A stretch of DNA of 37,975 bases, taken from Gammaproteobacteria bacterium (GTDB taxonomy: Bacteria; Pseudomonadota; Gammaproteobacteria; Steroidobacterales; Steroidobacteraceae). This document shows, piece after piece, positions 2,396 through 11,500 of the stretch. Under the pieces are notes generated by a model. The model ran no database searches and was not told the DNA's origin. It was given only the letters and a program-made list of their open reading frames with translations. The translations under genes and the position numbers were made by a program. Where the stretch lies: contig VEPJ01000075.1 of assembly GCA_012026925.1 (NCBI GenBank), positions 8,133-46,107 on the forward strand. Reading direction: 5' to 3'. Every line of letters starts with the position of its first letter. The stretch's first letter is position 1.

Positions 2396-2493
2396 GGTTA
2401 ACGGTTAGCGGCTAGCGGTTAGTAAGAGGCCGGCAATGCCGACCGGTGGACCTGCTTACCTTACTATCCGCTATCCGCTGATCACTGATCACC
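2396..2493. repeat. Heptad-repeat inverted repeat, copy 1 (between kef-type gene and purT)
   Basis: The left arm is four consecutive 7-bp units, GGTTAAC GGTTAGC GGCTAGC GGTTAGT, followed by AAG. The right arm, read on the opposite strand, is again heptads: GGTGATC AGTGATC AGCGGAT AGCGGAT AGTAAGG. The arms are imperfectly complementary and flank a central ~28 bp segment. The same architecture and nearly the same units recur at 10786-10875. The element starts 17 bp after the antiporter stop and ends 17 bp before the purT ATG, so its RNA would sit in the 3' end of one transcript or the leader of the next. Function unknown: REP-like repeat, MITE remnant or structured terminator are possible. Confidence 0.8.
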
Positions 2494-6647: not shown

Positions 6648-7696
6648 ACCGCCTTGCGATTCTCCTCCTCGCGAGCTTTGCGCTCGCATCCTGCGGCAAG
6701 TCGCAGGCGCCCGGCCCCGCCCCGGCCGCGGCCACTCCCGTTCGCACGGCAATCGTCGAGAGCGTGGACGTGGGCAACGCGGTGCGCTCCGTCGGCGTGC
6801 TTGCGCCGCGCGACGAGTTCCGGCTGTCCTTCAAGGTCGGCGGCGTCATAGACAGCATCGCGGTGGATGCCGGCGACGCCGTCCGCAAGGGACAGGTGCT
6901 CGCGCTCATCAAGCGCGCGGAAGTGGATGCCGCGGTCGCGCAGGCGTCCGAAGCGACCGAGAAGGCACGCCGCGACCTCGAGCGCGGTCAACGGCTGCGC
7001 GCGGACGAGGTCGCCACGGAGGAGCAGGTACAGGACCTCACCACGGCCTACAACGTTGCGCGCGCAAACCTCGAGGCCGCGCGCTTCAACGCGCGCTTTG
7101 CACGCATCGAGGCGCCGGGGGACGGCGTCGTGCTGCAGAAGCTCGCCGAGGCAAACGAACTCGTGCAGGCTGGCCAGCCCGTCCTGGTCCTCGGCGGCAC
7201 GGGCGCGGGCTGGATCGTGCGCACGGCGCTTGCGGATCGCGACGCGGTGCGCGTCAACGTCGGCGACGTCGCGCGGGTTGCATTCGACGCCTTCCCCGGG
7301 CGCGAGTTCGCGGGCAAGGTGACTCGCGTCGGCTCGAGCGCCGACCCGTTGACGGGCACGTTCGAGGTCGAGATCGACGTGGCCCCGGATGGCGCGCGCT
7401 TCGTGCGGGGCCTCGTTGCCAAGGTGTCGCTCGACATCAGCGACGGCGACGCGGCTGGCATCCGCACCGTCGTGCCGGTAACCGCGATCGTCGAGGCAAA
7501 CGGCGCCGTCGCGACCGTGTACCTGCTGGATGCACAGGCCGGCGTCGCCCGGCGCAGGCAGGTCACCGTCGGGCCGCTCGTCGGCGATCGCGTGATCGTC
7601 ACCGCCGGCCTTGCGGCGGGGGACCGGGTGGTCACGGACGGCGCCGCCTGGCTCGCGGACGGCAAGCCCGTCCACGTCGTCGGGCAGCAGGGCTGA
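6644..7696 (+). CDS. RND efflux periplasmic adaptor (membrane fusion) lipoprotein
   Basis: 350-residue HlyD/AcrA-type adaptor joining the inner-membrane pump to the outer-membrane channel. The N-terminus is a lipoprotein signal (LAILLLASFALASC, lipidation at Cys17). Then follow a barrel-sandwich/lipoyl half-motif (FKVGGVIDSIAVDAGDAVRKGQVLA), a coiled-coil hairpin, the second lipoyl half (ARIEAPGDGVV), and beta-barrel and membrane-proximal domains ending in GDRVVTDGAAWLADGKPV. The GTG start overlaps the channel's TGA (GTGA) and has AAGGAG upstream; the track shows this gene only as the tail of a long spurious ORF starting at 4844. Part of the TetR-channel-adaptor-pump operon. Confidence 0.92.
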   Translation: MNRLAILLLASFALASCGKSQAPGPAPAAATPVRTAIVESVDVGNAVRSVGVLAPRDEFRLSFKVGGVIDSIAVDAGDAVRKGQVLALIKRAEVDAAVAQASEATEKARRDLERGQRLRADEVATEEQVQDLTTAYNVARANLEAARFNARFARIEAPGDGVVLQKLAEANELVQAGQPVLVLGGTGAGWIVRTALADRDAVRVNVGDVARVAFDAFPGREFAGKVTRVGSSADPLTGTFEVEIDVAPDGARFVRGLVAKVSLDISDGDAAGIRTVVPVTAIVEANGAVATVYLLDAQAGVARRRQVTVGPLVGDRVIVTAGLAAGDRVVTDGAAWLADGKPVHVVGQQG

Positions 7697-7706
7697 GGCC
7701 GCGGCC

Positions 7707-10700
7707 GTGCGCATCTGGGCCTTCAGCGTCCAGCGCTGGCAGTTCACGCTGGTGCTGTTCGGCCTGCTGATCGCGGTCGGCATCAACTCGCTGGTCAACA
7801 TTCCCCGCTCGGAGGACCCCGAGTTCCACGTGCCGATCCCGACCGTGGTGGCCGTGTACCCGGGCGCGGACCCGGTCGACATCGAGCGCCTCGTCGTGGA
7901 CCCGATCGAGGACGCGATCAACGAACTCGACGACATCAAGCGCATCGACAGCCGTTCGCTCGACGGCGTGGGCGTCATCCAGCCCGAGTTCCACTGGGAC
8001 ACGGACCCGGACGAGAAATACGACCAGGTCGTGCGGGAGGTCAACCGGATCCGCGCGCAGCTGCCAGCGGACCTCGCCTCGCTCGAGGTGCGCAAGGCCG
8101 GGTCCGGACTCGTCAACATCGTGCAGGTCGCGCTCGTGAGCGAGGACGCGAGCTATCACGATCTCAAGGAACTCGCCGAGGACCTGCGCGACTCGATCGA
8201 GACGGTGCCGGGCGTGCGGCGCGGAGCGTACTGGGCGGTGCCGGAACCGGAGGTGCGAGTCGCGATCGACCTCGAGCGCATGGGGCGCGCGGGCGTCACG
8301 CTCGGCCAGGTCGAGAACGCGATCCGCGGCGAGAACGCGACCGTGCCCGGCGGCTCCGTCGACGTCGGGCTGCGGAAGTACAACCTGAAGACGTCGGGCG
8401 GCTACGACTCGCTGGATGAAGTCGCCGAGACCGTCGTCGCCAGTCGCGAAGGCAAGCTCGTGAAGGTGCGCGACGTCGCCGACGTCGGCTGGGAGACCCA
8501 GGAGGAGCGCTATACCGGCCGGTTCAACGGCAGGCACGCGGTGTTCGTCACTGCGAACGCCAAGGACGGCAGCAACGTGTTCAAGGTGCGCAACGGCATC
8601 TACGCGAAGCTCGACGCGTTCGAGCGCAGCCTGCCGAAGGGGGTCACGCTCGAGCGCGGCTTCGACCAGAGCCGCAACGTGAGCCACCGCCTGACCCGTC
8701 TCGGCATCGACTTCATGATCGCGATCGCGCTCGTGGTGCTCACGCTGCTGCCGCTCGGCTTCCGCGCGTCGGCCGTCGTGATGATCTCGATCCCGCTGTC
8801 GCTCGCCATCGGGTTGTCGCTGCTCTACTTCACCGGCTTCTCGCTCAACCAGCTGTCGATCGCGGGCTTCGTGCTCGCGCTCGGCCTGCTCGTGGACGAC
8901 TCGATCGTGGTGGTGGAGAACATCGCGCGGTATCTGCGCGCCGGCTTCTCGCCGATCGAGGCCGCGATCGCCGCGACCGACCAGATCGCGCTCGCGGTGC
9001 TCGGCTGCACGGCCACGCTGCTGTTCGCGTTCCTGCCGCTGCTGTTCCTGCCGGAAGGCGCGGGGATCTTCGTGCGATCGTTGCCCGCGGCCGTGCTCTA
9101 CACGGTCCTGGCGTCGCTGCTGGTCGCGTTCACCGTGGTCCCCTTCCTGGCGAGCCGCATCCTGAAGCCCGAGGGCGAGGCCGGCGAGGGCAACAGGTTC
9201 CTGAAGGGCGTCATGGCCATCATCCACCGGGTGTACGGCCCCGCGCTGCGCGTTGCACTGGCGCGGCCGGCCCGGACGCTCCTGGCAGCCCTCGGCTTCG
9301 TGGCCGCCTCGGCGACGCTCGTGCCGCTGATCGGCTTCAGCCTCTTTCCGCCGGCCGACATCCCGCAGTTCCACGTCACGATCGAGACGCCCGACGGCGC
9401 CAGCCTCGCGGACACGGACCGCGCGCTGCGTTTCGTCGAGGACGAGCTGGCCCGCCACCCCGAGGTCAAGCACTACTTCGCCAACCTGGGCCACGGCAAC
9501 CCGCGCGTCTTCTACAACACGTTCCCCGAGGAGACCAATGCGAACGTCGCCGAGGTGTTCGCGGAGTTGCACGAGTTCGACCCGCGCCGCAGCCCGGAAC
9601 TCTACGAGGAGCTGCGCAGGAAGTTCGCGCAGTATCCCGGGGCACGCATCCTCGCGGAGCCGTACCAGAACGGGCCACCGATCGACGCGCCGATCGAGAT
9701 CGCGATCACGGGCCCCGATCTCGGGCAGCTCCGCGAGCTGGCCGCGAAGGCCGAGGCCATCATCGGGGGAACGCCCGGCACGCGCGACGTGGACAATCCG
9801 TTGCGACGGCTGCGCACGGACATCGACCTGCGCAGCGACTCGCAGAAGGCGGCGCTGCTCGGCGTCGCGCCCATCGAGGCCGATCGCACGGTCCGCGCGG
9901 CCGGCGCCGGCGTGAGCGCCGGCAAGTTCCGCGAACCGGACGGGGACGAGTACGACATCGCGCTCCGCCTGCCGATGCAGGGTCGCCAGACCCTGGACGC
10001 GCTGAACCTCATCGAAGTTGCCTCCGCCACCGGCAAGCCCGTGCCACTGCGCCAGATCTCGTCGCCGGAGTTCTCGGCCGGCGTGAGCGTGATCGAACGC
10101 CACGACCGGGAGCGCCAGGTCCTGCTGAGCGCGTACCCGGTGGACGGCTACAACACCGGCAAGGTCACGATGGACATCCTGAAGCGGCTCGATGCGATGG
10201 GGCTGCCGGCCGGCTACAGGCTGCGCGCCGGCGGCGAAGTCGAGGCGCGCCAGGAGAGTTTCGGCGGCATCGGCACGGCCGTCCTCGTGGCGGTGTTCGG
10301 CATCCTGGCCGTGCTGATCCTGGAGTTCGGCAGCTTCCGATCGATGCTGATCGTCGCGGGAGTCATCCCGCTTGGCGTCGCGGGCGGCCTCGTCGCGCTG
10401 CTCGTGACGGGCTACTCGCTCTCGTTCACGGCGATGATCGGGTTCGTCGCGCTCATCGGCATCGAGATCAAGAACTCGATCCTGCTGGTCGACTTCACGA
10501 ACCAGCTGCGCGAGCAGGGCGTGGCGCTCGACGAGGCCATCACGCGGGCGGGTGAGATCCGCTTCCTGCCGATCCTGCTCACGTCGGCCACCGCGATCGG
10601 CGGCCTGCTGCCGCTGGCCGTGCAGGGCTCGGGGCTCTACTCCCCGCTCTCGATCGTGATCATCGGCGGGTTGCTGTCCTCGACGCTGATCGGGCGGCTC

Positions 10701-10781
10701 GTCACGCCGGTGATGTACAAGATGCTGCCGCCGTCCATCACGCCCAAGGGGCCGGAGCAGCGCGATGCGGCGATGGCGTAG
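7707..10781 (+). CDS. RND-superfamily efflux pump, inner-membrane permease
   Basis: 1024-residue proton-driven drug exporter with the usual twelve-helix, two-repeat RND layout: one N-terminal helix, a large periplasmic loop (PRSEDPEFHVPIPTV and DPIEDAINELDDIKRI region), a helix bundle, a second loop, and a second bundle. The proton-relay aspartates are present in helix 4 (GLLVDDSIVVVEN, Asp397/Asp398). It resembles the proteobacterial efflux RND permeases that pair with AcrA-like adaptors rather than the heavy-metal CusA type, because no Met-rich sites are seen. GTG at 7707 is the start (V-R-I-W-A-F-S); the track start at 7611 lies inside the adaptor gene. Substrate unknown. Last gene of the operon, followed at once by the second heptad-repeat element. 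Confidence 0.94.
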   Translation: MRIWAFSVQRWQFTLVLFGLLIAVGINSLVNIPRSEDPEFHVPIPTVVAVYPGADPVDIERLVVDPIEDAINELDDIKRIDSRSLDGVGVIQPEFHWDTDPDEKYDQVVREVNRIRAQLPADLASLEVRKAGSGLVNIVQVALVSEDASYHDLKELAEDLRDSIETVPGVRRGAYWAVPEPEVRVAIDLERMGRAGVTLGQVENAIRGENATVPGGSVDVGLRKYNLKTSGGYDSLDEVAETVVASREGKLVKVRDVADVGWETQEERYTGRFNGRHAVFVTANAKDGSNVFKVRNGIYAKLDAFERSLPKGVTLERGFDQSRNVSHRLTRLGIDFMIAIALVVLTLLPLGFRASAVVMISIPLSLAIGLSLLYFTGFSLNQLSIAGFVLALGLLVDDSIVVVENIARYLRAGFSPIEAAIAATDQIALAVLGCTATLLFAFLPLLFLPEGAGIFVRSLPAAVLYTVLASLLVAFTVVPFLASRILKPEGEAGEGNRFLKGVMAIIHRVYGPALRVALARPARTLLAALGFVAASATLVPLIGFSLFPPADIPQFHVTIETPDGASLADTDRALRFVEDELARHPEVKHYFANLGHGNPRVFYNTFPEETNANVAEVFAELHEFDPRRSPELYEELRRKFAQYPGARILAEPYQNGPPIDAPIEIAITGPDLGQLRELAAKAEAIIGGTPGTRDVDNPLRRLRTDIDLRSDSQKAALLGVAPIEADRTVRAAGAGVSAGKFREPDGDEYDIALRLPMQGRQTLDALNLIEVASATGKPVPLRQISSPEFSAGVSVIERHDRERQVLLSAYPVDGYNTGKVTMDILKRLDAMGLPAGYRLRAGGEVEARQESFGGIGTAVLVAVFGILAVLILEFGSFRSMLIVAGVIPLGVAGGLVALLVTGYSLSFTAMIGFVALIGIEIKNSILLVDFTNQLREQGVALDEAITRAGEIRFLPILLTSATAIGGLLPLAVQGSGLYSPLSIVIIGGLLSSTLIGRLVTPVMYKMLPPSITPKGPEQRDAAMA

Positions 10782-10785
10782 GGGA

Positions 10786-10875
10786 AGCGGTTAGTGATCA
10801 GCGGTTAGCGGTCAGTGGTCAAGCGCCCGCCGCGGCGCTTCTTCACTTACCGCTAACCGCTAGTCACGAACCGCT
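10786..10875. repeat. Heptad-repeat inverted repeat, copy 2 (between RND pump and gntR, overlapping gntR 3' end)
   Basis: The left arm is five heptads, AGCGGTT AGTGATC AGCGGTT AGCGGTC AGTGGTC. The right arm on the minus strand reads AGCGGTT CGTGACT AGCGGTT AGCGGTA AGTG. The centre is an exact stem, AAGCGCC-CGCCGC-GGCGCTT (10821-10840), so the whole element can fold as one long hairpin of roughly 40 bp with few mismatches. It starts four bases after the RND stop, and its right end contains the gntR stop codon and last four sense codons. It is clearly related to the element at 2396-2493. Confidence 0.85.
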
Positions 10876-11225
10876 TTCGTGCTGCGCAGCAGCTCGTCGG
10901 CGTCGAGCCCGAGTCGTTCGATCGTCGCCGCGACGCGCGGCCATTCCTGCTCGAGGAAGCGCTGCCGCTCGCCCTTGAGCAGCTGCGTGCGAGCCCCGGC
11001 CGACACGAACATCCCGCGGCCGCGTCGCTTCTCGACCAGCCCCTCGTCCACCAGCTGCTGGTAACCCTTGAGGACCGTGAGTGGATTCAGCGAGAAGTCC
11101 GCGGCGACGCTGCGCACCGACGGCAGCGCATCACCGTCCGCCAGCACGCCCTCCAGGATCATCGCCACGACCTTGTCGCGGAGCTGGCGATAGATCGGCT
11201 GGGTGTCGTTCCAGTGTGAGTCCAT
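10860..11225 (-). CDS. GntR-family regulator, YtrA subfamily
   Basis: 121-residue transcription factor: a winged helix typical of GntR (PIYRQLRDKVVAMILEG, LPSVRSVAADFSLNPLTVLKGYQQL, EGLVEKRRGRGMFV) followed by only ~45 residues. The short C-terminal dimerisation segment places it in the YtrA subfamily, whose members often control neighbouring ABC transporters; none is found here. ATG at 11225 (M-D-S-H-W-N-D) is preferred to TTG at 11240. The last residues A-V-R-D and the TAG stop are encoded by the arm of the heptad-repeat hairpin, so the native C-terminus may have been altered. The perfect 20-bp palindrome 255 bp upstream and the TACAGT-containing inverted repeat are possible control sites. 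Confidence 0.88.
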   Translation of the reverse strand: MDSHWNDTQPIYRQLRDKVVAMILEGVLADGDALPSVRSVAADFSLNPLTVLKGYQQLVDEGLVEKRRGRGMFVSAGARTQLLKGERQRFLEQEWPRVAATIERLGLDADELLRSTKAVRD

Positions 11226-11480: not shown

Positions 11481-11500
11481 TGTTGTAGTTAACTACAACA
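11481..11500. promoter_or_regulatory. Perfect 20-bp palindrome, candidate GntR/YtrA operator
   Basis: TGTTGTAGTTAACTACAACA is self-complementary over all 20 bases and AT-rich in an otherwise GC-rich region. It has the GT...TA...AC arrangement described for YtrA-type GntR operators. It lies 37 bp upstream of the possible small ORF on the minus strand and 151 bp upstream of mdh on the plus strand. Binding by the neighbouring GntR protein is inference. Confidence 0.65.

What the first reader, a model, noticed from the sequence alone, without database searches (positions are those of the whole stretch)
10786..10875. Second heptad hairpin invades the 3' end of gntR and supplies its stop codon
The right arm of the element encodes the last residues A-V-R-D and the TAG stop of the GntR protein, while the left arm begins four bases after the RND stop. 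The repeat therefore seems to have inserted at, or grown into, a convergent gene boundary and rewritten a protein C-terminus. As a long hairpin it could also terminate both transcripts.
Basis: partly seen in the sequence, partly recalled or inferred. Interest (0 to 1): 0.6.

Follow-up and report, generated by a model that had tools for sequence, protein, structure and literature searches.

The report
Seven-base repeat hairpin ends a gene
A hairpin built from seven-base repeats sits between two genes that face each other and supplies the last five amino acids and the stop codon of one of them; related bacteria carry similar repeats at the same gene ends, but each species uses its own version of the repeat.

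Summary
Window 10785-10876 is a 43+43 nt inverted repeat (84% complementary, 6-nt loop, RNA fold z -9.4) made of degenerate heptads (GCGGTTA/GTGATCA type). Its right arm encodes the end of GntR, (K)AVRD-TAG, and its left arm starts four bases after the RND stop. It belongs to a dispersed family: at least 20 heptad elements in this genome (a MAG whose named GntR relatives are mostly Steroidobacteraceae), at gene 3' ends wherever the flanks could be read. Heptads supply stop codons repeatedly (gntR, rpe, folE2, trpD and others). Seven congeners with an intact gntR end differently: conserved GntR ends at residue ~114 and only a variable tail is rewritten. Repeat-free congeners have equal or shorter tails, not longer ones. 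At seven orthologous boundaries congeners carry heptads far more often than at control stops (10/44 versus 1/283), but the unit follows the genome, not the site (p<0.0005 versus 0.69). Hairpins are stronger between convergent genes than in tandem ones (p=0.008). No canonical intrinsic terminator was found at this site. Closest known: the function-unknown GGGAATC heptads of Xanthomonas. New variant of a known kind.

The parts
10786..10827 (+). left arm: A + heptads GCGGTTA(10787-10793) GTGATCA(10794-10800) GCGGTTA(10801-10807) GCGGTCA(10808-10814) GTGGTCA(10815-10821), then core stem AGCGCC
   Evidence: sequence; the repeat finder arm 10785-10827; tandem-repeat finder period 7/14 at 10786-10821
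10828..10833 (.). 6-nt loop CGCCGC
10834..10876 (-). right arm: core stem GGCGCT, then (reading the - strand from outside in) heptads GCGGTTC(10874-10868) GTGACTA(10867-10861) GCGGTTA(10860-10854) GCGGTAA(10853-10847) GTGAAGA(10846-10840)
10860..10862 (-). TAG stop of gntR, formed at the junction of two heptads (GTGAC-TA|G-CGGTTA)
   Evidence: the array starts at -5 relative to the stop here, in rpe (G000, G019) and in folE2 (G000, G092, G103)
10863..10877 (-). codons K-A-V-R-D of GntR, encoded by the outer end of the right arm (K only partly)
10860..11225 (-). gntR: 121-aa YtrA-like GntR regulator; conserved part ends near residue 114, tail 115-121 variable
   Evidence: Pfam PF00392, PDB 3tqn alignment, congener alignment, AF2 tail confidence 69 then 43
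7611..10781 (+). RND (AcrB/D/F family) pump gene, convergent with gntR; stop at 10779-10781
   Evidence: Pfam ACR_tran 1.5e-199; same convergent pair in G055, G070, G092, G103, G112
2396..2492 (.). first heptad hairpin of the window, between a KefC-like antiporter gene and a PurT-like gene in tandem; same family

Best explanation
The feature is one copy of a dispersed family of heptad arrays that settle at gene 3' ends in this genus. Shown: facing arrays of about 4-5 degenerate heptads (consensus GNGRNYA on the strand that is sense for the gene just ended), often around a short G+C-rich core hairpin, lie at or next to stop codons. Because 7 is not a multiple of 3 and most units form TA|G at their junction, any reading frame that runs into such an array meets a stop within about three units; so an array that overlaps a gene end replaces the final few residues and supplies the stop. 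At gntR it replaced a dispensable tail beyond the conserved fold. Inferred: arrays are gained and rewritten at gene ends (copying from other arrays plus slippage), are tolerated up to the point where the C-terminus matters, and where two gene ends face each other the opposed arrays make a strong 3'-end hairpin in both transcripts that protects the mRNA end or helps end transcription.
For: Family: 37 heptad-array hits at 19 places in the own genome plus one more found through its core (C96/L287). Location: the 15 elements whose flanks could be read all lie at a 3' end (5 convergent, 10 tandem, 0 divergent; one of them follows a tRNA-like 3' end); flanking genes confirmed by Pfam for ten pairs. 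Stops inside the array: gntR, both stops at folE2><kinase, rpe, trpD, trmH, glnA-like and others, about 9 of 19 coding 3' ends. Strand: 10 of 10 two-armed elements have the same arm order (binomial p 0.002). Empty sites: trpD-trpC has the element only in G000; atpD-atpC has a ~73-nt insert right after the stop in G019 but not in G039/G081, which are 97-98% identical in protein. Site sharing: 10/44 orthologous boundaries in congeners against 1/283 control stops, Fisher p 7e-9. Dialect: units are more alike within a genome than at the same site in different genomes (0.705 versus 0.640; permutation p<1/2000 for genome, 0.69 for site). Tolerance: at the conserved C-termini of atpD, purH and pnp the array starts 2-8 nt after the stop in G000 and most carriers (up to +32 in one congener); at variable ones (gntR, rpe, folE2, trpD) it mostly starts before the stop. 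Structure: hairpin z -9.4 to -10.8 for five convergent elements, -3.0 to -8.4 for five tandem ones, exact p 0.008.
Against: The two arms of an element do not match each other significantly better than arms of different elements (0.697 versus 0.680, p 0.15), so the pairing may be a by-product of sharing a unit rather than selected. Elements also sit inside housekeeping operons (atpD-atpC, trpD-trpC, purH-purD), where termination would be harmful. No U-tract terminator is recognised at this site or at rpe, only at pnp. No expression data. The genome is an incomplete MAG (71.6%). Gene orientations come from a simple ORF scorer. The control for site sharing uses sampled contigs of two congeners, and the convergent/tandem comparison was made after seeing the data on ten elements.
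Confidence: 0.62

Rival explanations
1. Neutral slippage product: heptad arrays are ordinary long simple-sequence repeats that expand by polymerase slippage and survive only between genes; the stop codon and C-terminal residues are a side effect and the hairpin has no function.
For: Arms are not matched to each other beyond chance; elements occur inside atp, trp and pur operons; arrays vary in unit and length and are absent from close relatives; period-9 arrays appear at the same rpe boundary in G039/G081; Rehm et al. (PMC4692102) found no function for Xanthomonas heptads.
Against: Slippage alone does not explain one dialect shared by many places of a genome, the constant arm order in 10 of 10 elements, the repeated use of the same boundaries, or stronger hairpins between convergent genes.
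Confidence: 0.25
2. Miniature mobile element: a preformed hairpin (MITE- or REP-like) moved by a transposase inserts at gene ends, like the Coxiella QMITEs that overlap gene 3' ends.
For: Dispersed family with a recurring outer boundary (G)GAAAGCGG in many G000 copies; clean empty sites at trpD-trpC and atpD-atpC; Coxiella QMITEs overlap C-termini and in one case supply 33 residues (PMC5896051).
Against: Arms differ in sequence, unit number and even unit type between copies; at atpD-atpC in G019 the two arms use different units; many copies have one arm only; no target-site duplication is evident by eye.
Confidence: 0.1

Closest known systems
GGGAATC / GGGGA(C/T)T heptameric repeats of Xanthomonas and Nostoc (Rehm et al. 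2015, PMC4692102)
   Same: 7-nt unit, about four units per array, mostly intergenic, close to the 3' end of the preceding gene, G-rich strand preferred downstream on the coding strand, rare between divergent genes, sometimes as facing inverted pairs, same gene boundaries with changed sequence in related species, function unknown
   Different: unit here is GNGRNYA (GCGGTTA/GTGATCA) without the GGG runs needed for a quadruplex and carries stop codons in all sense frames; each congener has its own dialect; G+C core hairpin in many copies; documented rewriting of C-termini
TAACTGA repeats of marine Beggiatoaceae (MacGregor 2015, PMC4679880)
   Same: 7-nt intergenic direct repeats that contain stop codons, dispersed in the genome
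   Different: one fixed unit, mostly just upstream of start codons, almost never inverted (one indirect repeat beside 169 sets of direct repeats)
QMITE1/QMITE2 of Coxiella burnetii (PMC5896051)
   Same: palindromic dispersed elements overlapping gene 3' ends and supplying C-terminal residues
   Different: not built of heptads; mobile-element hallmarks (direct repeats, terminal inverted repeats) described there
REP/BIME palindromes (GTAG- and CGTC-tagged; PMC3733652)
   Same: dispersed extragenic palindromes, proposed roles in 3'-end stability or termination
   Different: no GTAG or CGTC tag at the foot; arms are heptad arrays of variable length

Membership tests
Heptameric intergenic repeats (Xanthomonas/Nostoc type, Rehm et al.) | tandem unit of 7 nt | tested here: met
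   period-7 arrays in the own genome and in G092 samples
Heptameric intergenic repeats (Xanthomonas/Nostoc type, Rehm et al.) | unit GGGAATC or GGGGA(C/T)T with G-tracts for a quadruplex | tested here: not met
   units in this element are GCGGTTA/GTGATCA type with no GGG run; congener G092 does have GGGGATA units
Heptameric intergenic repeats (Xanthomonas/Nostoc type, Rehm et al.) | located near the 3' end of the preceding gene, rare between divergent genes | tested here: met
   15 of 15 readable elements at a 3' end, none divergent
TAACTGA repeats | unit TAACTGA upstream of start codons | tested here: not met
   unit and position differ (definition)
REP elements | GTAG or CGTC tag at one end of the palindrome | tested here: not met
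   ends are (G)GAAGCGG / CCGCTTTC; definition from the abstract of PMC3733652
REP elements | REP-associated tyrosine transposase in the genome | not tested
MITE | terminal inverted repeats of constant sequence plus target-site duplication | tested here: inconclusive
   inverted arms present but variable; no duplication evident by eye at the atpD-atpC insert of G019 against G039/G081
Intrinsic (Rho-independent) terminator | G+C-rich stem followed by a run of T/U on the transcript strand | tested here: not met
   no site reported at 10786-10876 on either strand; met for another copy, at pnp

The most novel reading that the evidence does not exclude
A genus-wide gene-end cassette in which only the period (7) and the site at the stop codon are kept, while the unit sequence is rewritten across the whole genome of each species. 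That would mean an active copying or homogenising process acts on these arrays, and that selection keeps them as combined all-frame translation stops and 3'-end hairpins.
Probability: 0.2. Interest if true: 0.7.

Novelty: new variant of a known kind. Interest (0 to 1): 0.45.

Why it matters
Heptad repeats in bacterial genomes have been described for years without a settled function or mechanism of spread. This genus offers a natural series: the same gene ends with and without arrays, and with different units, including a near-identical trio in which only one genome has the atpD-atpC insert. That makes gain, unit turnover and effect on transcript ends directly testable. It also shows a route by which repeats repeatedly rewrite protein C-termini without breaking the proteins.

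Tried and rejected
Rfam: no match anywhere in the window, so no described RNA family. Precise inverted duplication or arm-to-arm covariation: not supported, own arms match no better than those of other elements (p 0.15). Truncation of a longer GntR: rejected within the genus, where repeat-free congeners are 115 or 121 aa; longer tails occur in many other relatives, where gntR is mostly followed directly by another gene on the same strand. Canonical bidirectional terminator at this site: not supported. Sampling of G103 and G055 for array density was largely lost to withheld contigs (N runs). Pattern controls are uninformative for GTGATTA because its reversed pattern matches itself in another register.

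Full report
Observation. The element at 10785-10876 is real and far from chance: two 43-nt arms, 84% complementary, with a 6-nt loop, folding at -76.6 kcal/mol against -43.2 +/- 3.6 for shuffles. The arms are five degenerate heptads each, with a short G+C core at the loop. The left arm starts four bases after the RND stop (10779-10781). The right arm, read on the - strand, is (K)-A-V-R-D-TAG, the end of a 121-aa GntR regulator.

The family. A degenerate heptad pattern finds 37 hits at 19 places of the own genome, a 71.6%-complete MAG; one further element turned up through its core. The named GntR relatives of highest identity are mostly Steroidobacteraceae MAGs. Ten of the elements are two-armed, always with the G-rich strand first, so that it is the sense strand for a gene that ends there (10 of 10, p 0.002). 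Several carry a central G+C hairpin such as AGGCCGGC-ATC-GCCGGCCT. Fifteen elements have readable flanks: five convergent, ten tandem, none divergent, all at a 3' end (flanking genes of ten pairs named by Pfam: folE2><protein kinase, pnp><phaR, crp><rpe, sulfotransferase-like><EF-G, trmH-rpsF, atpD-atpC, trpD-trpC, purH-purD, glnA-like-aminotransferase, metG-like-rnfA).

Stops in the array. In about nine of nineteen coding 3' ends the stop codon lies inside the array. This follows from the geometry: a 7-nt period shifts the frame at every unit, and units such as GCGGTTA, GTGATTA or GGGGATA put TAG or TGA into all three sense frames within about three units. GntR is therefore a typical case, not an oddity.

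What happened to GntR. Seven congeners with an intact gntR were aligned. Conservation stops near residue 113. The best structural relative, Coxiella 3tqn, ends at the position of residue 114. Tails differ between lineages: LLKK in G112, G039 and G019; DGRKEKSK in G055; GDARAGKG in G070; heptad-encoded GGDGGEGIGDSERR in G092 and SGQGKGDRGQ in G103. The AF2 model has low confidence in the tail. In many relatives outside the genus gntR is instead followed directly by another gene and has longer variable tails.

Same places, different words. At seven boundaries chosen because G000 has an element there, congeners carry three or more heptads in 10 of 44 cases against 1 of 283 control stops. Yet the units follow the genome and not the place: similarity 0.705 within a genome across places, 0.640 at the same place across genomes, 0.634 otherwise (permutation p<1/2000 and 0.69). 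Examples at rpe: GCGGATA/GTGGTTA in G000, GGGAATA in G092, GTGAATA/GGGGATA in G103, GGGGTTA in G019, period-9 arrays in G039 and G081, nothing in G070 and G112. Clean presence/absence pairs: trpD-trpC, filled only in G000, and atpD-atpC, filled in G019 but empty in its near relatives G039 and G081. Genes with conserved ends (atpD, purH, pnp) have arrays starting after the stop (7-8 nt in G000; 2 to 32 nt in congeners); genes with loose ends mostly have arrays that start before it. I read this as arrays being free to move in until the protein end matters (inference).

Function. Hairpins of the five convergent elements are all stronger (z -9.4 to -10.8) than those of the five tandem ones (-3.0 to -8.4; exact p 0.008). 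This fits a role at shared transcript ends. Against it, arms of one element are not matched better than arms of different elements, some elements lie inside housekeeping operons, and no U-tract terminator is recognised here, though one is at pnp. I put 0.62 on the account as a whole, most of it on the descriptive part, with neutral slippage as the main rival.

Known relatives. The closest described thing is the GGGAATC heptad family of Xanthomonas (PMC4692102), which shares period, copy number per array, 3'-end bias, strand bias and occasional inversion, and has no known function. It differs in unit and in quadruplex potential. TAACTGA repeats (PMC4679880) share the period and the stops but sit before start codons. 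Coxiella QMITEs (PMC5896051) show that dispersed palindromes can supply C-termini. This case is filed as a new variant of the heptad-repeat kind.

Limits. Gene calls are from a simple codon scorer, the genomes are incomplete MAGs, some congener contigs are withheld, the control stops come from two congeners, the structure comparison rests on ten elements, and there are no expression data.

Noticed in passing
window 11481-11500: Perfect 20-nt palindrome TGTTGTAGTTAACTACAACA about 255-275 bp upstream of gntR. The full 20 nt recur about 277-294 bp upstream of gntR in congeners G070, G092 and G112, and its centre (GTAGTTAACTA) in G019, G039 and G055. Probable operator, possibly of this GntR itself.
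   Followed up: partly
window 2396-2492: Another heptad hairpin, between a KefC-like antiporter gene and a PurT-like gene in tandem; weaker fold (z -6.6) than the convergent elements.
   Followed up: yes
L240 and L242 (rpe 3' ends of G039 and G081): Arrays of period 9 (AGGAAGGGC) instead of 7 at the same boundary where relatives have heptads.
   Followed up: no
L266 and L271 (G055): G055 has no heptad arrays at the boundaries tested but shows a different palindrome (GGGGACATTCTCCTTTT...AAAAGGAGAATGTCCCC type) at the ends of pnp and purH, perhaps another repeat family filling the same niche.
   Followed up: no
G000 contigs C13, C43, C167: Heptad arrays lie within about 200 bases or less of contig ends, so they may break assemblies and be under-counted in MAGs.
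   Followed up: no
L150 (G081:C94): gntR of G081 appears frame-disrupted (two tblastn pieces, 1-53 and 73-121) with GTGATTA-type heptads at its 3' end.
   Followed up: no
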